Assembly: GCF_017603825.1 (NCBI RefSeq)
Contig: NZ_CP072014.1
Span: 2,108,001 to 2,172,000 of the forward strand
Length of the DNA stretch: 64,000 nucleotides
From: Arthrobacter crystallopoietes
GTDB lineage: Bacteria; Actinomycetota; Actinomycetes; Actinomycetales; Micrococcaceae
Direction of reading: 5' to 3'
Shown: positions 6,742-16,227 of the stretch, piece by piece
How positions within the stretch are numbered: position 1 is the stretch's first letter
Layout: every line of letters starts with the position of its first letter
The notes under the pieces: generated by a model
Database searches by the model: none
What the model was told of the DNA's origin: nothing
Seen by the model: the letters and a program-made list of their open reading frames with translations, nothing else
Translations under genes and position numbers: made by a program

Positions 6742-7842
6742 ATGACACTCGTCGCCCACCCCAGCGAAGCACTTTCCCTCACCACCAGTACGGCGGTAGC
6801 CGCGGATCCCCTGCGGCTGCAGCGGGCCAAGAAGGCCTACACCACCCGTTTCCTCGCGGATCGGCTGGCACTCGATCCGTCAGGGTACGAACTGCTGGAC
6901 ATTGCCCCGGCCGCCGGCGATGTGGTGCTGGCCAAAGTGGTGGAAATCGGGAGTCACACGAAGCTGGAAAGCCCGGCCTCGCGCCGCCAGGCCATGTTCC
7001 CCGGCGACGAAATCCTGGTCTCCTTCGGGAACCGCTACGCGCCGGACCAGTTCCTCGCCGTGGTGCCGGATGACCTGAGCGAATGCAGCCTGGTGGCTGG
7101 CGGCGGACTGGCCGCCCGGGTCCTTGAACAGCACGCGGACATCGACAAGGCCACTACCATCCAGCCGATCGGCTTGCTCGCCAAGGACGGCGTGGTGGTC
7201 AACCTGCAGGACCTGGCGCCGCACGCCGTCAATCACGCTACGGAACTGCCCGGCCGGCCGCCGGTGATTGCGGTGCTGGGTACCTCCATGAATTCGGGCA
7301 AGTCGACCACGCTGGGCTGTCTGGTAAACGGGCTGGACGCAGCGGGCCTGCGGGTTTCCGCCGGCAAGGCGACCGGGACCGGCTCCGGCAACGATCCGCG
7401 CCTCTTCACGGACGCCGGTGCCCGCCTGGTGCTCGACTTTACCGACTTCGGTTTCCCCACCACTTACCTGCTGGACTACGAAACCGTGCGCGGCCTGCTG
7501 ACCAGCCTCATCGACACCCTGACCACGGCCGAGTCCGATGTGATCGTGGTGGAGATTGCCGACGGCGTCTACCAGGGCGAAACGAGCAGACTGCTCCATG
7601 ACCCGGTTTTCCACGCCGCCGTCGACCATGTAGTGTTCGCCGCCGCGGATGCGCTGGGCGCCACGGCGGGCATCGGAGTCCTGCAGGATGCCGGCGTTTC
7701 CGTGCCGGCGGTTTCGGGCCTGCTCACAGCCTCGCCGCTTGCCGCCCGGGAAGCCGCCGGCGTCATCACTACCCGCGTGATCAACACCTATGATCTGTGC
7801 AACCCGGCAACCGCCCTGGAACTGTTGCCTGCACGCAAGTAA
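6742..7842 (+). CDS. P-loop NTPase, DUF1611-like, with N-terminal beta-rich domain
   Basis: 366 residues from ATG 6742, set by AGGAGAAG at 6731-6738. Residues about 55-160 form a strand-rich domain (DVVLAKVVEIGSHTKLE, FPGDEILVSFGNRYAPDQF). The C-terminal half is a P-loop domain with Walker A GTSMNSGKST (180-189), VSAGKATGTGSGNDP, LDFTDFGFPTTY and a Walker-B-like VIVVEIADG (267-275). This layout resembles DUF1611-type ATP-binding proteins of unknown role. The ATG of an ABC-exporter-like gene lies only 16 bases after its stop, and that protein has lost its own Walker A. The pair may therefore work together, with this protein supplying or gating nucleotide hydrolysis, but that is inference. It could instead be an independent ligase or synthase. 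Confidence 0.65.
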   Translation: MTLVAHPSEALSLTTSTAVAADPLRLQRAKKAYTTRFLADRLALDPSGYELLDIAPAAGDVVLAKVVEIGSHTKLESPASRRQAMFPGDEILVSFGNRYAPDQFLAVVPDDLSECSLVAGGGLAARVLEQHADIDKATTIQPIGLLAKDGVVVNLQDLAPHAVNHATELPGRPPVIAVLGTSMNSGKSTTLGCLVNGLDAAGLRVSAGKATGTGSGNDPRLFTDAGARLVLDFTDFGFPTTYLLDYETVRGLLTSLIDTLTTAESDVIVVEIADGVYQGETSRLLHDPVFHAAVDHVVFAAADALGATAGIGVLQDAGVSVPAVSGLLTASPLAAREAAGVITTRVINTYDLCNPATALELLPARK

Positions 7843-7857
7843 GGGCAGGTGTGAAAC

Positions 7858-9612
7858 ATGCCTAGCAAGAAACTTCCGCCAGGCCTGCCCAGGCTGCTCA
7901 GTGGCCGCCGGCGTGGTTTGATGGCGATGCTGGTCGGTACCGGCCTGGCCATGGCGGCGGTGACCGGTGCCAGCGCGCTGCTGATGATGTGGTTGCTCGA
8001 CGACGCCCCAGCAGGTGCCGGGAATATCGTCCCCCTCGTCGCCGGGCTGGCCGCGGCCGCGCTGGCCATCGGCGGCCTGCGGGCTCTCGAGCGTGTGCTG
8101 GGCGAGATGCTCGGCCAGGACTACATCCATCAGATCCGCAAGGGCCTGGTGAAATCCGCGCTCGCCACCGACCGGGGACCGTCGCCGGGCGTGACCATCG
8201 CGCGTAGCACCAACGACCTCTCCAGCGTGCGCAACTGGATTGCGATGGGAATCGCGCCGCTGGCCGTAGGCATCCCGCTCATCCTCGGTACTGCAGTGGC
8301 ACTATGGCTGCTCGCACCGGGACTTGCCCTCGCCGTCGTCGTTCCCCTGGCCGTTCTGGCTGCAGGCTTGGCGATGCTGGCCAGACCGGCCTTTGAACGG
8401 GCGCGTGCCCTGCGGCGGCAACGCGGGCGGCTCGCGGCACGGCTCGCCGATACGGTCATGGCAGCCGGCACGATCCGCGCCGCAGGTGGCGAGGCGCGCG
8501 AGGTCAAGCAGGTGGACAAGGCCGGCCGCAGTGTGGTCGACGCGGCAGTGCATCGCGCCGCCGCTTCCGGTTCCATCCGTGGTGCCGCCGCAGCCGCCGC
8601 CTCGCTGGGCACCGCTGCCGTCGCCGCCGTAGGCAGCTGGCAAGCCATTCCGACGGCGACTGTGGCCGCCGCGCTGACCATCGTGGGCATCATCGCGGCC
8701 CCCATTGCTGACATGGGCCGCGCCGTCGAATACCGGCAGAACTTCAAGGCCGCACGCCGGATCCTTGGTCCCGCCCTCGCCGTCTCGGCAACGCAAGGAA
8801 ATGAACGACGACGGCGGGTGGCCGCCTCCGCTGGCCACGCCACTGCGGTGGGTGCGACTGCGGTGGGTGTGAATGAAGTGGCTTCAAACGGGGAGGTGGT
8901 GAACGGAGAGCCGCTGAACGCTGAGGATGCGGGCACGCTCCTGGTAGCGGGCATGTCCGAGTGCCGGAACTGCCCCGTCCCGGAGCTTCGGGCCGGGCCG
9001 GGCCAACGGGTGCGCATTCGCTCCGCGGATCCGGCAGTGGAGACCAGGCTGCTGGAAACGCTGATCGGTGTGCGCAGTGATCCCGATGCGTTTACTCAGG
9101 TCGATGGCATATCGCTGCTGGACAGCGGCGGACGGGACCGGCGGCGGCTGGTCGGCTACGCCGCTGCCGGAGCCTATCTGGAGCGGGGATCGATCGCCCG
9201 CAGCGTGCGCTACCGCAGGCCTGATCTGGACGTGGCGGAAGGAACGGCCGCCCTGGAACAGGTGGGACTGGCCGGCCCTATTGCCCGGCTGGAGCGGGGC
9301 GAGCAGACCCTGCTCAAGCGCGGCGGCGAGCCCTTGTCCACCTCGGAACGGGCACGGCTGGTGCTGGCCCGGGCAATGCTGGGGGAGCCGCCGGTGCTTG
9401 TGATCAACCGGCTGGACGCGGATCTGGACCGGGACGGCAGAAAGATGCTGGCATCGGTTGTACGCGACTATCCCGGAGTGGTGCTGTTCGCCTCGGACGA
9501 TCCGGACGCGCTCGCCGCCGGTTTCACCGAATGGTCCGTTGACTGTCCCCATGCCGGATTGGACCTGACCTGGGTAGCCGCGCGTCCCGCCGTCGTTCAT
9601 GATGCGTACTGA
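7858..9612 (+). CDS. ABC-exporter-like protein with degenerate nucleotide-binding domain
   Basis: 584 residues. Residues 1-310 look like a type I exporter membrane domain: hydrophobic segments near 21-47, 57-75, 128-150, 151-175, 243-265 and 266-285, and long charged loops (FERARALRRQRGRLAARLADTV, here residues 179-200). A linker (310-355) leads to an ABC-ATPase-shaped domain. The Walker A position reads RIRSADPAVETRL (386-398) instead of GxxGxGKS. The signature loop is LSTSERARLVLARAML instead of LSGGE. Walker B is PVLVINRLDADLD, lacking the Asp-Glu pair, and the H-loop histidine is absent (LFASDDPDAL). It should not hydrolyse ATP in the usual way. Paired with the preceding P-loop gene in a likely operon. 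Substrate unknown. Confidence 0.7.
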   Translation: MPSKKLPPGLPRLLSGRRRGLMAMLVGTGLAMAAVTGASALLMMWLLDDAPAGAGNIVPLVAGLAAAALAIGGLRALERVLGEMLGQDYIHQIRKGLVKSALATDRGPSPGVTIARSTNDLSSVRNWIAMGIAPLAVGIPLILGTAVALWLLAPGLALAVVVPLAVLAAGLAMLARPAFERARALRRQRGRLAARLADTVMAAGTIRAAGGEAREVKQVDKAGRSVVDAAVHRAAASGSIRGAAAAAASLGTAAVAAVGSWQAIPTATVAAALTIVGIIAAPIADMGRAVEYRQNFKAARRILGPALAVSATQGNERRRRVAASAGHATAVGATAVGVNEVASNGEVVNGEPLNAEDAGTLLVAGMSECRNCPVPELRAGPGQRVRIRSADPAVETRLLETLIGVRSDPDAFTQVDGISLLDSGGRDRRRLVGYAAAGAYLERGSIARSVRYRRPDLDVAEGTAALEQVGLAGPIARLERGEQTLLKRGGEPLSTSERARLVLARAMLGEPPVLVINRLDADLDRDGRKMLASVVRDYPGVVLFASDDPDALAAGFTEWSVDCPHAGLDLTWVAARPAVVHDAY

Positions 9613-9853: not shown

Positions 9854-11473
9854 TTAGAAGGGTGGTGGGGTGTAGAGGTCAGGTGGTGGTGGTTCGGTTG
9901 GTGGGCGGATGGACCAGCTGTTTTCGGGGGTGCTGGTCCATTCGTGGCCGGTCCGCGATTTCCAGGTGGTGCTGCCGTCGGGATACTGGGTGACTGTCCA
10001 GCCGCCGGCGTGCTTGGACATGTGCTCGGGTTTGCAGAGCGCTTTGAGATTTCCGAGCACGGTTTTACCGCCGTCTTCCCAGGCGACGGTGTGGTCGACC
10101 TCGCAGAACCGGGCTTCCACGCGGCAGCCGGGGCCGCTGCAGTGCCCGTCACGTAACCGGACGAGGCGTTTGAGCCATTCGGGCGGGTGCCGCAGGTCTT
10201 TCGCGGCCGCGACCGCGTTGCGGTACTCATCGGTCAGGACCAGCAACCAGGATTTCGCGAGGCCGGCAAGGTTGCGGGCCATGTCCGGCGGGATCGGCCC
10301 GTACCCGGCGAGTTCGCCGGGCTCCTCGCTCAACCCCGCCGCGGTCTCCAACGACAACGTGACCGCGACACTGGCCGTGATCCCCGCCCCAGCACCCGTC
10401 CCCGTCCCGGCACAGGTGCCCGTGCCGCTCCCGGTACCCTTGCAGGTTCCGTTCCCGGTGACTGTGCTGCCGTTGCAGGTGCAGCCGCCGGTGCGGGTGC
10501 CGGGGTTGAGGAGCAGGTCGGTGATGACGTCGGCGCGCAGCTGGGGCAGGGTCCGGGCTTCTTCGGGGCCCTGCAGCTTCTTCGCGAGGGCCTGGACGAG
10601 GTTGAACACCATGACTGCCTTGTCCGCGGCGCAGCGGAACCAGACTTCGGCCATCCCGTCATCCTGCGGCACGAGACCGGCATTGCGGGACCGGTCCGCG
10701 CGTTCGTGGCGCACGGTGAGGGTTTCCGGGTGCAGCCGTTCACGGGCCTTGCGGGCACGGGCCTGCACACTCTCCACCGTGATCTTGCCGGCCTGGGGCA
10801 GGACGGCGGCCTCGAACGCCGGCAGCAGGTCCTCGGGCAGGTCCTGGGAACCGCGGGCGATCGCGGTGGCCCGCGGCAGGTCCAGGTTCCCGGCGGCCAT
10901 CGCCTCCACCGTGGCCGGCAGATGCCCGGACAGCTGCGCGGCCTCGGCCATGTCCTTCAGCGCGCTGCCGCGGGGCTGGGCCAGGGCCGCGGCGATCTCC
11001 GTCGCCGCGCAGGAGGAAAACCCGTGCGCGTTGCCGGTCTCGGCGCCCTCGGCCGGACGCAGCTCGGTGAACCGGTTCAACGCCTTCACCCGGCCCGACT
11101 GCAGCCACGCCACGGCCTTCGCCGACGCCTGCAGGTAATCAATGGTCCCGACATCATCGAGGCCTTCCGGATCAATCCGCTCCAGCACCGCGGCCAGCGC
11201 CGCCGGCGCCAGGGTCTCCCAGCCCTCCGGCAGACCCGGCACCTCCGGCAGGACCGCGGCCGCCGCCAGCACCGCGGCGGCTTCCTCGGCCGCTTCGTCG
11301 AACGGCCCGGTAAGACGGCCGCCGAAGGCCAGGTTCTCCCCGGCCCAGGCATCGAGCAGGAGTTTATGCAGCATGATTTCCAACAGCGAACTCCCCGCCA
11401 AACCGAGCGCCCGCAAACCACGGTCCCGGTCCGGCTCCGGCGCCGGTATGAAATCAAACTGGAAGCCATCCAT
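9854..11473 (-). CDS. DUF222/13E12-family protein with C-terminal HNH endonuclease domain
   Basis: 539 residues. The N-terminal two thirds is the Ala/Leu-rich helical DUF222 region found in mycobacterial 13E12 repeats and many Micrococcaceae copies (LSGHLPATVEAMAAGNLDLPRATAIA, split here by residue runs). An HNH nuclease domain follows near residues 440-495: RDGHCSGPGCRVEARFCEVD, then HTVAWEDGGKT and NLKALCKPEHMSKH, with zinc-ligand cysteines and the catalytic His. Between them a Gly/Thr/Cys-rich low-complexity stretch (about residues 323-365) is encoded by a degenerate GC repeat. The C-terminus is proline-rich. These proteins occur in many diverged genomic copies, their role is not established, and they may be selfish or involved in recombination. 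Alone, no partner. Confidence 0.85.
   Translation of the reverse strand: MDGFQFDFIPAPEPDRDRGLRALGLAGSSLLEIMLHKLLLDAWAGENLAFGGRLTGPFDEAAEEAAAVLAAAAVLPEVPGLPEGWETLAPAALAAVLERIDPEGLDDVGTIDYLQASAKAVAWLQSGRVKALNRFTELRPAEGAETGNAHGFSSCAATEIAAALAQPRGSALKDMAEAAQLSGHLPATVEAMAAGNLDLPRATAIARGSQDLPEDLLPAFEAAVLPQAGKITVESVQARARKARERLHPETLTVRHERADRSRNAGLVPQDDGMAEVWFRCAADKAVMVFNLVQALAKKLQGPEEARTLPQLRADVITDLLLNPGTRTGGCTCNGSTVTGNGTCKGTGSGTGTCAGTGTGAGAGITASVAVTLSLETAAGLSEEPGELAGYGPIPPDMARNLAGLAKSWLLVLTDEYRNAVAAAKDLRHPPEWLKRLVRLRDGHCSGPGCRVEARFCEVDHTVAWEDGGKTVLGNLKALCKPEHMSKHAGGWTVTQYPDGSTTWKSRTGHEWTSTPENSWSIRPPTEPPPPDLYTPPPF
10377..10505. repeat. Degenerate GC-rich minisatellite inside the HNH gene
   Basis: Short units of the type CCGGTxCC/CCCGTxCC recur through this stretch and encode alternating Gly, Thr, Ser and Cys residues on the minus strand. 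Length variation here between strains would leave the reading frame intact only in steps of three. Confidence 0.5.
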
Positions 11474-13078: not shown

Positions 13079-14113
13079 ATGGCATCCCCGAAGCCCCAAC
13101 CCGGCGACTCCATGGCCGCGAGTGGCCGTTCCAGGAAACGGACCGTCGGTCTGACTGTCTACGGGGTACTCGCCGCCCTTGTCATCGCGGGAGCAGTCTT
13201 CACCTCCTCCCGCAGTGCAGCCGATGCAGAACTCCGCAGCAAGCTGACCCTTATTGCCCCTGCTGGTGCCGGAGGCGGGTGGGACACTTTCGCCCGTGAG
13301 CAGCAGCAGGCCCTGCGCTCCAACGGCATTGTGAACAGCGTTCAGGTTGTCAACGTTCCCGGCGCCGCGGGCACCATAGGCCTGGGACAGTTTTCCACCA
13401 TGCACGGACAGTCCTCGACCCTGATGGCTACGGGCACCGTGATGCTGGGTGGCATCCAGCTCAACGACTCCCCGGTGGGAATGGACGACGTGCGCCCCCT
13501 GGCCCGGCTGGCCGATGATTACGACGCGATCGTGGTGCCTGCCGATTCGCCATTCAACTCCATCGATGACCTGATCGCCGAGTGGAAGAAGAATCCACGG
13601 GGATTCCCGTTCACCGGCGGTTCCATCGGCTCCATTGACCATCTGGTCATGGCGCAACTGGCCATGGAAGCCGGGATTGATGCCTCGCAGACCACATACA
13701 TCCCCAACACCAGTGGCGGCGAAGCCCTGCAGACAGTCTTTTCCGATACTGCCAAGGCAGCCATCAGCGGCTACAACGAGTTTGCGGACCAGATCGAGGC
13801 GGGAAGAGTGAAGGTTCTGGCCATCTCGGCACCGCAACGGCTGGAAGGCATCGACGTTCCCACCTTGCTGGAGGAAGGCTACGACGTGCAGATGAGCAAC
13901 TGGCGCGGGATGGTCGCAGCACCGGGGACCAGCGACGAGGACTTCGAGGAACTGCTGAGTATCATCACGGAGATGTCGCAGACGGAGGAGTGGGAAGACG
14001 CTCTGGCCCGCAACCAATGGGATAACACCTTTATGGTCGGCGAAGAATTCGAGGAGTTCATCGCCGTGGAGGAAAAGGAAGTCGCCGAGATCCTGGAAGG
14101 GCTGGACCTGTGA
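13079..14113 (+). CDS. tctC: Tripartite tricarboxylate transporter, substrate-binding protein
   Basis: 344 residues. The Bug/TctC-type binding protein captures a small carboxylate outside the cell and delivers it to the TctAB membrane pair. Residues 20-45 (RKRTVGLTVYGVLAALVIAG) are a positively charged signal/anchor segment rather than a lipobox. The family motifs LTLIAPAGAGGGWDTFAREQ, VVNVPGAAGTIGLGQF and FTGGSIGSIDHLVMAQLA follow. The downstream tctB start GTG overlaps the stop (GTGA) and tctA follows at once, so this is one operon. No TctDE two-component sensor gene is adjacent. The ligand (citrate or another di/tricarboxylate) is not determined. Confidence 0.9.
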   Translation: MASPKPQPGDSMAASGRSRKRTVGLTVYGVLAALVIAGAVFTSSRSAADAELRSKLTLIAPAGAGGGWDTFAREQQQALRSNGIVNSVQVVNVPGAAGTIGLGQFSTMHGQSSTLMATGTVMLGGIQLNDSPVGMDDVRPLARLADDYDAIVVPADSPFNSIDDLIAEWKKNPRGFPFTGGSIGSIDHLVMAQLAMEAGIDASQTTYIPNTSGGEALQTVFSDTAKAAISGYNEFADQIEAGRVKVLAISAPQRLEGIDVPTLLEEGYDVQMSNWRGMVAAPGTSDEDFEELLSIITEMSQTEEWEDALARNQWDNTFMVGEEFEEFIAVEEKEVAEILEGLDL

Positions 14114-14721
14114 CACATCCGGACAATCATACGCACACGGGTACAGCGCCCCCGGCCGGGGATGCTGTGCCTGCTGCCCGGGGCTTCTGGCACGGACGCA
14201 GCGGAATCGTCATTGCCGTCATACTGGCGGCGTTCAGCACCTATTTGCTGGTCGGCATATTCGACATGGACGTACCTTCGGGGGCGGCCTTCCCCGGACC
14301 GACGTTCTTCCCCGTACTGATCGTGGCGGCCGGCTACCTTCTTTCAGTGCTCCTGGCCGTCTTCACGATCAAGAATCCGGATCCACCCAAGCCGCCGCAC
14401 TACGAATTCGAAGAGGATCTCGATCCGGACGTACGGGCCACGGCCGAAAAGGCAGCGGCCAGGAAGTACGCAACGTATTCCGACTGGTCCTCGGTTGCGG
14501 TGGCTATCGGCAGCTTCCTGCTTTTCGCTTTGCTGATGGAACCGCTCGGTTGGATCATCGCCGCCGCTGTTCTGTTCTGGGGAATGGCCCGCGCCATGGG
14601 GAGCCAGCGGCCGTTGTTCGATATCAGCCTGGCGCTGGTAGTCGCCTCGCTTGTCCAGCTTGCCTTCGGTGCCGCGCTGGGCCTCAATCTGCCCGCCGGG
14701 ATCCTGGGAGGTGTGTTCTGA
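14110..14721 (+). CDS. tctB: Tripartite tricarboxylate transporter, small membrane subunit
   Basis: 203 residues, the small four-helix TctB subunit of the importer. Hydrophobic segments are readable at about 32-52 (IVIAVILAAFSTYLLVGIFD), 62-85, 130-150 and 165-195. A charged cytosolic loop (residues about 92-120, NPDPPKPPHYEFEEDLDP) separates the first and second pair. It starts at a GTG overlapping the tctC stop by 4 bases and ends immediately before the tctA ATG, so translation is probably coupled through the operon. Confidence 0.88.
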   Translation: MTHPDNHTHTGTAPPAGDAVPAARGFWHGRSGIVIAVILAAFSTYLLVGIFDMDVPSGAAFPGPTFFPVLIVAAGYLLSVLLAVFTIKNPDPPKPPHYEFEEDLDPDVRATAEKAAARKYATYSDWSSVAVAIGSFLLFALLMEPLGWIIAAAVLFWGMARAMGSQRPLFDISLALVVASLVQLAFGAALGLNLPAGILGGVF

Positions 14722-16227
14722 ATGGATGCTCTGGCCAATCTGATGGAAGGCTTCAGCCTGGCGCTGACGCCGATGAATCTGCTCTGGGTAGTCGTGGGCG
14801 CGTTCCTCGGCACCGCAGTCGGGGTGCTGCCGGGACTCGGGTCCTCCATGGCAGTGGCGCTGCTGCTGCCGATGACCTTCGCGCTGGATCCGATCGGGGC
14901 GTTCATCATGTTCGCCGGGGTGTACTTCGGTGGGCTCTTCGGCGATTCCACCATGGCCATCCTGATGAACACACCCGGACAAGCCTCCTCGATCGCCAGT
15001 ACGTTCGAAGGCCACAAGATGGCCAAGGCCGGCAGGGCACCGCAAGCGCTGGCAACCGCTGCCATCGGCGCCTTCATCGGCGGTATCATTGCCAGCCTGC
15101 TGGTGGTGTTCTTCGCCCCCGTCCTGGCCGATCTGTCCGCCAACTTCGGCCCGCAGGAATTCTTCGCGCTGGCTGTCTTCGCGTTCCTGGCCACCTCCTC
15201 GGTCGTCTCGGACTCGGTGATCAAGGGACTGGTTTCCCTGGTCTTCGGCCTGGGCATTGCCGTGCTCGGCATCGACAGCATCTCCGGTGCCGAGCGCTTC
15301 AGTTTCGGCGTGCCGGAACTTTTCGACGGCGTCAACATCATCACCGTCACCGTGGGCATCCTGGCCCTCGGCGAGGTGTTCCACGTGGCCTCGCGCATCC
15401 GGCGCGATCCGGCCGCCGTGGCCACGCCGTCCTCGGGCCGGCCGTACCTCTCCAAAGCCGAATTCCGTGAGGCGCTGCCGGCCTGGCTGCGCGGCACGGC
15501 GATCGGTGTACCTTTCGGGGTCATTCCCGTGGGTGGCGCGGAAGTGCCCACGTTTCTGGCTTACGGGGCCGAACGTTCGCTGGACCGCCGCCGCCGGAAG
15601 CCGATGTTCGGCAAGGGTGCCATCCGCGGGCTGGCCGCCCCGGAAGCGGCCGGCAACGCGACCACGGGTACCGCGATGGGAGCGCTGCTGGCGCTGGGCC
15701 TGCCGGTCTCGGCCACCGCGGCCATCATGCTGGCCGCGTTCCAGCAGTACGGGCTGCAGCCGGGCCCGCTGCTCTTTGACCGGGCCCCGGATCTGGTCTG
15801 GGCGCTGCTGGCCAGCTTCTTCCTCGGCCTGATCGTGCTGCTGATCCTGAACCTGCCCTTCGCGCGCTTCTGGGCCAAGCTGCTGCTGATCCCCAAGCAG
15901 TACCTGTACGCGGGAATCTCGGTCTTCTGCGGACTGGGCGTCTATGCGACGTCGGCGTCGGTGTTCGACCTGCTGATGGTGCTCGGCATCGGGGTGCTGG
16001 GCTTCCTGATGCGCCGCTACGGCGTCCCGCTGGCGCCGATCATGATCGGCATAGTGCTGGGTCCGCTGGCCGAAACCTCTATGCGCTCGGCGCTATTGTC
16101 CTCGAACGGGGACTACTCCGTTTTCGTGGACAGCCCGATCACCGTCACGCTGTACATCCTGCTGGCCGTCGCGCTGAGTATCACGGCGTTCAGCCGGATC
16201 CGTGCGCGTGCCAAGGCCGATGTTTAG
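14722..16227 (+). CDS. tctA: Tripartite tricarboxylate transporter, large membrane subunit
   Basis: 501 residues with about 12 membrane segments, the transport channel of the system. The conserved signature near the start is intact: VLPGLGSSMAVALLLPMTFALD, here residues 33-54, then FIMFAGVYFGGLFGDSTMAI and LMNTPGQASSIASTFEGH. The second conserved half appears as GVIPVGGAEVPTFLAYGAER and AAPEAAGNATTGTAMGALLA. Length is usual for TctA. The ATG directly abuts the tctB stop. A long hairpin at 16248-16290 ends the operon. Confidence 0.92.
   Translation: MDALANLMEGFSLALTPMNLLWVVVGAFLGTAVGVLPGLGSSMAVALLLPMTFALDPIGAFIMFAGVYFGGLFGDSTMAILMNTPGQASSIASTFEGHKMAKAGRAPQALATAAIGAFIGGIIASLLVVFFAPVLADLSANFGPQEFFALAVFAFLATSSVVSDSVIKGLVSLVFGLGIAVLGIDSISGAERFSFGVPELFDGVNIITVTVGILALGEVFHVASRIRRDPAAVATPSSGRPYLSKAEFREALPAWLRGTAIGVPFGVIPVGGAEVPTFLAYGAERSLDRRRRKPMFGKGAIRGLAAPEAAGNATTGTAMGALLALGLPVSATAAIMLAAFQQYGLQPGPLLFDRAPDLVWALLASFFLGLIVLLILNLPFARFWAKLLLIPKQYLYAGISVFCGLGVYATSASVFDLLMVLGIGVLGFLMRRYGVPLAPIMIGIVLGPLAETSMRSALLSSNGDYSVFVDSPITVTLYILLAVALSITAFSRIRARAKADV

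What the first reader, a model, noticed from the sequence alone, without database searches (positions are those of the whole stretch)
6742..9612. P-loop protein paired with an ABC exporter that has lost its own ATPase
The ABC-like protein keeps a type I exporter membrane domain, but Walker A, signature, Walker B acid and H-loop are all altered. The gene directly upstream, 16 bases away, encodes a protein with an intact P-loop (GTSMNSGKST). This suggests a non-standard transport or membrane system in which energy or regulation comes in trans. It is the best candidate here for an undescribed system.
Basis: partly seen in the sequence, partly recalled or inferred. Interest (0 to 1): 0.7.

Follow-up and report, generated by a model that had tools for sequence, protein, structure and literature searches.

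The report
Exporter that repeatedly lost its ATPase
A two-gene unit found across several bacterial phyla pairs an uncharacterised ATP-binding enzyme with a membrane exporter that has lost its own ATP motor several times over, yet is still kept intact by selection.

Summary
Window 6742-7842 encodes a P-loop protein; 7858-9612 encodes a type I ABC exporter whose NBD lacks Walker A, signature, Walker B Glu and H-loop His. It is not decay: Walker A is gone in all 22 related pairs read (window included), and the dead NBD is under the same purifying selection as the membrane domain (omega 0.08-0.19; linker 0.67-1.58).

The P-loop gene occurs in several phyla. Elsewhere it sits beside an ABC with intact Walker A (28 of 93 ABC-bearing loci), a membrane-domain-only ABC (2), an MFS transporter (6 further loci), or no ABC. 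So it did not arise to replace the lost ATPase, and ATPase loss recurred (at least 4 label changes forced on the tree).

The P-loop protein resembles dethiobiotin synthetase/DUF1611/DgcN enzymes plus an N-terminal barrel without a PDB match. Many loci with other exporter types add a hydrolase related to poly(aspartic acid) hydrolase-1.

Best reading: a small-molecule enzyme plus its exporter, the exporter running here without ATP hydrolysis. Substrate unknown. New variant of a known kind; interest 0.62.

The parts
6742..7842 (+). P-loop protein, 366 aa: N-terminal beta-rich domain (about residues 20-160) plus BioD/DUF1611-like P-loop domain (about 170-366)
   Evidence: weak Pfam DUF1611 17.7 bits, cut-off 25
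7279..7308 (+). P-loop GTSMNSGKST; Walker Lys187 present in 73 of 74 aligned family members
7363..7395 (+). GKATGTGSGND: K209, T211, G212, D218 invariant in 74 of 74; KATGTG (209-214) lines up with KPAQTG of the genome's own dethiobiotin synthetase
7546..7566 (+). VVEIADG: E271, D274, G275 invariant in 74 of 74; lines up with LVEGAGG of dethiobiotin synthetase
7858..9612 (+). type I ABC exporter half-transporter, 584 aa, NBD without catalytic motifs
9022..9045 (+). position of Walker A, reads SADPAVET
9181..9222 (+). ERGSIARSVRYRRP: R443, R448, Y452 and R453 kept in 45-46 of 46 dead actinobacterial NBDs
9334..9357 (+). position of ABC signature, reads LSTSERAR
9394..9429 (+). position of Walker B / D-loop, reads VLVINRLDADLD (no catalytic Glu)
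9484..9501 (+). position of H-loop, reads LFASDD (no His)

Best explanation
The two genes are the core of a widespread, apparently undescribed cassette: an ATP-dependent enzyme of the dethiobiotin-synthetase/DUF1611 kind that makes or modifies a small molecule, and the exporter that carries the product out. The ancestral exporter was a normal ABC half-transporter. In the clade of this window, and separately in some alphaproteobacteria, the exporter lost the ATPase motifs, mostly keeping the NBD. It most likely now works as a homodimer in a facilitated or ion-gradient-driven mode, as the membrane domain of LmrA does in the laboratory, with the dead NBD kept for structure, assembly or gating. 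Shown here: pairing, recurrent loss of motifs, selection on the dead NBD, fold class of the P-loop protein, an MFS in the exporter's place in one clade. Inferred: direction of the change (loss), enzyme activity, export of its product, ATP-independent transport. The substrate is unknown; an amide or ester of an acidic amino acid is a lead only, from the hydrolase.
For: Pair conserved as neighbours in all 22 of 99 genomes that have the ABC. NBD state of 93 ABC-bearing loci (6 are second records of the same genomes): 28 Walker A intact, 57 degenerate, 8 with no NBD seen, of which 5 are cut by a contig end, 1 is split into two ORFs and 2 are membrane-domain-only. Tree of 99 P-loop proteins: the degenerate label needs 5 changes, at least 4 forced by starred branches; the actinobacterial dead rows fall in one starred group of 50. 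Genome G181 holds both a degenerate pair and an intact pair with hydrolase. MFS in the ABC's place in 6 loci by profile, one of them checked in Pfam, one starred clade. With a family profile the window ABC scores 599.5 bits and that of G002, not in the profile, 590.5; next-best ABC of the window genome 256.5. dN/dS over 15 pairs: NBD 0.079-0.194, membrane domain 0.080-0.196, linker 0.667-1.578. P-loop domain: dethiobiotin synthetase 3fmi Z 16.6, rmsd 2.9, 183 aligned; DUF1611 2g0t Z 16.4, 2obn 15.5; DgcN 7xrj 15.0; hhalign to the genome's own BioD and five relatives E 6.2e-6 over 179 columns. Precedent for ATP-free transport: LmrA membrane domain (PMC2704374, PMC6155054, passages).
Against: No substrate, activity or transport is shown. 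The P-loop gene occurs without a family ABC in 9 of 20 further loci and in 5 of the 99 tree rows scored 'none', so its work does not always need this exporter. Related P-loop folds also include metallochaperones and targeting GTPases (HypB, ApbC, SRP), so 'enzyme' is not certain. No ion-coupling residue was looked for or identified. If transport no longer needs the NBD, its strong conservation needs another reason. Two of the 22 family-level ABCs (L076, L080) keep a Walker B Glu, though not Walker A.
Confidence: 0.45

Rival explanations
1. The exporter is no longer a transporter: the ABC fold is a membrane scaffold, receptor or regulator for the P-loop enzyme.
For: The catalytic motifs are gone while the NBD stays under purifying selection; residues R429, R443, R448 and Y452 are present in 46 of 46 and R453 in 45 of 46 dead actinobacterial NBDs, against 56-89% in 27 relatives with intact Walker A, as expected of a binding surface.
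Against: In six loci the slot is filled by an MFS transporter and in two by a membrane domain without any NBD, which fits a transport role better.
Confidence: 0.25
2. Energy or control in trans: the P-loop protein binds the dead NBD and drives or gates transport with its own NTP hydrolysis.
For: Tight pairing, intact P-loop (K187 in 73 of 74), conserved dead NBD.
Against: The P-loop gene is equally paired with ABCs whose Walker A is intact (28 of 93 loci), with an MFS, and occurs without a family ABC; the nearest folds include biosynthetic enzymes.
Confidence: 0.15
3. The dead ABC is one half of a heterodimer with a canonical half-transporter encoded elsewhere, as in known degenerate-site exporters.
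For: Heterodimeric exporters with one degenerate site are known (PMC7756269, passages); the window genome has 108 ABC ATPase matches, and seven places besides this ABC match the exporter profile at E 1e-30.
Against: Each ATP site takes Walker A from one NBD and the signature from the other (PMC7756269); here one chain has lost both, so both sites would be impaired. In the neighbourhood clusters listed I saw no second ABC gene in more than 5 of 80 loci.
Confidence: 0.1
4. Local decay of an ABC gene.
For: Motif loss alone would look like this.
Against: Walker A lost in all 22 family-level rows (window included) and its Lys absent in 46 of 46 complete non-duplicate actinobacterial rows; omega 0.08-0.19 in the NBD; long open reading frames.
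Confidence: 0.01

Closest known systems
Type I ABC exporters with a degenerate nucleotide-binding site (reviewed in PMC7756269)
   Same: ABC_membrane domain plus NBD with altered catalytic motifs
   Different: The cases in the passages seen keep one canonical site; here one chain has lost Walker A, signature, Walker B Glu and H-loop together, so neither site of a homodimer could work, and no canonical partner is evident
LmrA-MD, the engineered NBD-less LmrA (PMC2704374, PMC6155054)
   Same: membrane domain proposed to work without ATP hydrolysis in a secondary-active mode
   Different: LmrA-MD was made in the laboratory; here loss is natural, recurrent and the dead NBD is mostly kept
Dethiobiotin synthetase BioD
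   Same: fold of the P-loop domain (Z 16.6); K-x-x-x-T-G and V-E-x-x-x-G stretches line up
   Different: extra N-terminal domain; no TIGR00347 match for the window protein; the window genome has its own BioD elsewhere
DUF1611 proteins and the N-acetyltransferase DgcN
   Same: P-loop domain fold (2g0t Z 16.4, 2obn 15.5, 7xrj 15.0)
   Different: below the Pfam cut-off in the window protein; the profile match to four DUF1611 proteins covers only the P-loop domain; neighbours of DUF1611 genes were not compared
Poly(aspartic acid) hydrolase-1 PahZ1 / LpqC
   Same: nearest solved relatives of the third gene seen in other loci (E 1e-48, 5e-46)
   Different: no such gene beside the window pair, and only a weak partial match in its genome (E 1.3e-4)

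Membership tests
Functional ABC exporter | Type I membrane domain | tested here: met
   PF00664 E 3.4e-12, 47 bits against 28
Functional ABC exporter | Walker A, signature, Walker B Glu, H-loop His in the NBD | tested here: not met
   SADPAVET, LSTSERAR, VLVINRLDADLD, LFASDD; ABC_tran 14.2 of 25 bits
Functional ABC exporter | ATP-dependent transport | not testable with these tools
   needs purified protein
CydC (TIGR02868), best NCBIfam match of the ABC | curated equivalog score | tested here: not met
   82.6 bits against 329.05
DUF1611 (PF07755) | Pfam gathering score | tested here: not met
   17.7 of 25 bits; 52 of 74 family members match at E up to 0.01, best 2.1e-5
DUF1611 / DgcN | fold of the P-loop domain | tested here: met
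   2g0t Z 16.4, rmsd 2.8, 175 aligned; 2obn Z 15.5; 7xrj Z 15.0
Dethiobiotin synthetase (TIGR00347) | curated equivalog match | tested here: not met
   not among the window protein's NCBIfam matches at E up to 1; 5 of 74 relatives match at E up to 0.01
Dethiobiotin synthetase | P-loop domain fold and matching motif stretches | tested here: met
   3fmi Z 16.6, rmsd 2.9, 183 aligned; profile alignment; which of these residues are catalytic in BioD is recalled, not tested
MobB (PF03205) | Pfam gathering score | tested here: not met
   12.4 of 26.6 bits
Known anti-phage defence proteins | PADLOC match | tested here: not met
   0 families for either window protein at E 0.001
N-terminal domain in a known PDB fold | significant structural match | tested here: inconclusive
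   model pLDDT 96.9; best Foldseek E 0.18, best VIA Z 3.0

The most novel reading that the evidence does not exclude
A naturally evolved class of ABC exporters that has given up ATP hydrolysis several times independently and runs as a secondary or facilitated transporter, with the dead NBD repurposed as a docking surface for a partner ATP-dependent enzyme of a new family, which hands its product straight to the pore.
Probability: 0.2. Interest if true: 0.85.

Novelty: new variant of a known kind. Interest (0 to 1): 0.62.

Why it matters
Whether the membrane domain of an ABC exporter can transport without its ATPase has been argued from engineered LmrA (PMC2704374, PMC6155054, passages) and from proton coupling in MsbA (PMC4979069, search listing only). 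Here nature appears to have made the experiment repeatedly: versions of one exporter family with and without the catalytic motifs, an MFS substitute, and one genome carrying both a dead and an intact pair. That makes the question directly testable. It also points to an unnamed enzyme family with a conserved exporter and, often, a hydrolase, so probably an unknown metabolite.

Tried and rejected
Local decay: rejected. CphA-associated ABC (NF052233) as a clue to cyanophycin: rejected, general ABC similarity only (53.8 bits against 880 for the window ABC; 199.9 against 880 for an intact relative). Defence system: no PADLOC match for either window protein (an intact relative's ABC matches six models there). 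A partner gene common to all loci beyond the pair: none found; in the 23-locus family profile no other gene cluster reached more than 7 loci apart from ORFs on the opposite strand of the pair itself; in the 80-locus set the hydrolase (25 loci), response regulator (19) and sensor kinase (15) clusters were the largest besides the pair and ORFs opposite it, with HTTM/DoxX-type, porin, sigma-factor and subtilase genes in smaller parts. Hydrolase tracking ATPase loss: not a simple rule; of non-duplicate loci, hydrolase near 16 of 28 intact, 4 of 49 complete degenerate, 2 of 2 membrane-only, 6 of 6 MFS and 3 of 5 complete loci with no transporter (searched from 3 kb before to 6 kb after; the three plasmid loci were set to 'present' by me from the annotation and translations). 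N-terminal domain fold search: no significant match. Literature searches were narrow (open-licence papers only): DUF1611 occurs in 2 papers, neither read; no paper on this pair was seen, which does not show that none exists. Limits of the counts: 'intact' means the Walker A pattern G....GK[ST]; in the three Streptomyces loci so counted (L174, L175, L185) signature and H-loop are altered, and L161 is cut off after Walker A. The tree is a quick search with SH-aLRT only, rows L113, L114, L115, L119, L121, L128, L160 and L196 were left out of it and 9 of its 99 rows had no state; it counts label changes and cannot tell loss from gain. Of 8 plasmid records with a match four were opened and three used; the fourth (L196) has its match in a frame annotated as transposase. 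Distribution within proteobacterial classes was not measured.
Full report
What is there. Window 6742-7842 (+) is a 366-aa protein with P-loop GTSMNSGKST; 15 bases after its stop, 7858-9612 (+) is a 584-aa ABC half-exporter. The membrane domain passes Pfam (47 bits, cut-off 28); the NBD does not (14.2 bits, cut-off 25). Neighbours are a histidine phosphatase and an FMN reductase upstream and a DUF222 gene downstream. In the family-level profile of 23 loci no other gene cluster reaches more than 7 loci, leaving aside ORFs on the opposite strand of the pair itself. The host is probably Arthrobacter-like: G006, same genus, has a contig of the same length (4608) and match as an Arthrobacter crystallopoietes record (inference).

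Is it real and conserved. Of 99 genomes (own plus 98 relatives), 23 have the P-loop gene and 22 the ABC at E 1e-20 or better; all 22 are P-loop-positive and the genes are neighbours (in draft genome G006 they are split over two contigs). A draw from the family gives 62 of 295 with the P-loop gene and one from the class 17 of 345, so it is patchy. All 22 ABC rows read at this level (window included, one partial) lack Walker A; two (L076, L080) keep a Walker B Glu. With a profile of the exporter family the window ABC scores 599.5 bits and the next ABC of the genome 256.5; the ABC of G002, which is not in the profile, scores 590.5. It is a distinct family.

Not decay. Across six close relatives (15 pairs) omega is 0.079-0.194 in the dead NBD, 0.080-0.196 in the membrane domain, and 0.667-1.578 in the 33-50 codons of linker between them, which serve as an internal control. 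Among 46 complete, non-duplicate actinobacterial dead NBDs the Walker A Lys is kept in 0, the Walker B Glu in 2 and the H-loop His in 1, yet Arg429, Arg443, Arg448 and Tyr452 are present in 46 and Arg453 in 45; in 27 relatives with intact Walker A the same columns carry these residues in 56-89%. The dead NBD has been reshaped and kept, not abandoned.

The wider family. By record titles and tree labels they include Actinomycetota, Pseudomonadota, Cyanobacteriota, Chloroflexota, Nitrospirota, Thermodesulfobacteriota and Myxococcota, several only as metagenome bins. In 68 of the 80 the window ABC finds a match just downstream. With the family loci and three plasmid loci, 93 loci have an adjacent family ABC; 6 of the 93 are second records of genomes already in the set, judged by equal contig length. 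By Walker A, 28 are intact, 57 degenerate and 8 show no NBD; of the 8, five are cut by a contig end (L061, L113, L156, L186, L192; the first two are one contig), L140 is split into two ORFs, and L151 and L182 are membrane-domain-only. In six loci without the ABC an MFS gene follows (one confirmed in Pfam). Of 20 further loci fetched (15 of the 17 class-level hits and 5 family genomes), 9 have the P-loop gene and no family ABC, 7 an ABC with Walker A, and 4 an ABC without it; one of the 7 (L197) is probably the genome of L159. Genome G181 has one dead pair (L083) and a second pair with Walker A GANGSGKS plus the hydrolase (L212).

History. On a tree of 99 P-loop proteins (quick search; 9 rows without a state, 8 rows left out beforehand) the degenerate label needs 5 changes, at least 4 forced by starred branches; the MFS group is one starred clade; the actinobacterial dead group of 50 rows (45 scored degenerate, 1 without a transporter, 4 unscored) has support 99. 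Since regaining four motifs is implausible, I read these as repeated losses of ATPase: once in the large actinobacterial clade of the window, and separately among Paracoccus plasmids and in Novosphingobium, Blastomonas and Asticcacaulis. The exact number is open.

What the P-loop protein is. AlphaFold2 gives pLDDT 95.0. The C-terminal domain matches dethiobiotin synthetase (3fmi Z 16.6, rmsd 2.9, 183 aligned), DUF1611 proteins (2g0t Z 16.4, 2obn 15.5) and DgcN (7xrj 15.0); rows within 1 Z are tied, and CTP synthase, HypB and SRP GTPases follow at Z 14-15. Profile comparison with the genome's own BioD and five relatives aligns 179 columns, E 6.2e-6, and lays GTSMNSGKS on GTDTGVGKT, KATGTG on KPAQTG and VEIADG on VEGAGG; comparison with four DUF1611 proteins gives E 5.9e-6 over 81 columns. 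K209, T211, G212, D218, E271, D274 and G275 are invariant in 74 of 74 members and K187 is in 73. That pattern speaks for an ATP-dependent enzyme rather than a transport motor, by inference; no activity is shown. The N-terminal domain, predicted alone at pLDDT 96.9, has no significant PDB match (best Z 3.0), which does not prove a new fold. For the window's P-loop protein no Pfam or NCBIfam model reaches its cut-off; for the ABC only the general ABC_membrane domain does, among the rows shown (25 of 51 NCBIfam rows).

The third gene. In many Pseudomonadota loci, and in two actinobacterial loci with an intact ABC (L200, L212), an alpha/beta hydrolase lies in the cassette. Its nearest solved relatives are poly(aspartic acid) hydrolase-1 (E 1e-48) and LpqC (5e-46), over most of the profile; a PahZ1 enzyme cleaves beta-amide bonds between Asp units (PMC4456602, abstract). 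In one locus ABC and hydrolase form a single 922-aa reading frame. The window genome has only a weak partial match (E 1.3e-4). So the hydrolase belongs to the wider cassette, not to the window's version, and the link to acidic amides is only a lead.

How it most likely works. An ATP-dependent enzyme makes or modifies a small molecule and its neighbour exports it. An MFS in the same place fits a transport role, and secondary-active transport by the ABC membrane domain has precedent: LmrA-MD catalyses ethidium-proton symport without ATP (PMC2704374 and PMC6155054, passages). A heterodimer with a canonical half would not rescue ATPase in an obvious way, because each site takes Walker A from one NBD and the signature from the other (PMC7756269, passages) and this chain has lost both. 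Energy in trans from the P-loop protein remains possible but is not what the distribution suggests, since the same gene accompanies ABCs with intact Walker A and MFS transporters. A non-transport scaffold role is the strongest rival.

Verdict. Observation confirmed; interpretation partly supported; a widespread cassette, undescribed as far as the family libraries and the narrow literature searches listed can tell, with an exporter that repeatedly lost its ATPase.

Noticed in passing
L212 and L083 (genome G181): One genome holds a degenerate pair and, elsewhere, a divergent pair with intact Walker A and a PahZ1-like hydrolase: a natural control.
   Followed up: partly
L203-L211: P-loop gene without a family ABC in 9 genomes (8 of one genus code, 1 of another family); in 8 of them it follows a conserved long ORF that looks like NAD-dependent DNA ligase (by eye, recalled).
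   Followed up: partly
L179:7706-10471: ABC exporter and alpha/beta hydrolase fused in one 922-aa reading frame.
   Followed up: yes
L147, L150, L152, L157, L162, L183: An MFS transporter takes the place of the ABC beside the same P-loop gene and hydrolase.
   Followed up: partly
L080, L081, L137, L146, L155, L164, L169, L193: HTTM/DoxX-type membrane genes, in most of these loci with a small partner gene, recur near the cassette in both Actinomycetota and Pseudomonadota.
   Followed up: no
L151, L166, L178, L182, L191, L193, L195: ECF sigma factor and subtilase (S8) genes lie near the cassette in alphaproteobacteria, with an anti-sigma-like gene in the profile-scored loci.
   Followed up: no
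window 13079-16227: TctC receptor and TctA transporter genes of a tripartite tricarboxylate transporter.
   Followed up: no
window 9854-11473: DUF222 protein on the minus strand just after the pair.
   Followed up: no
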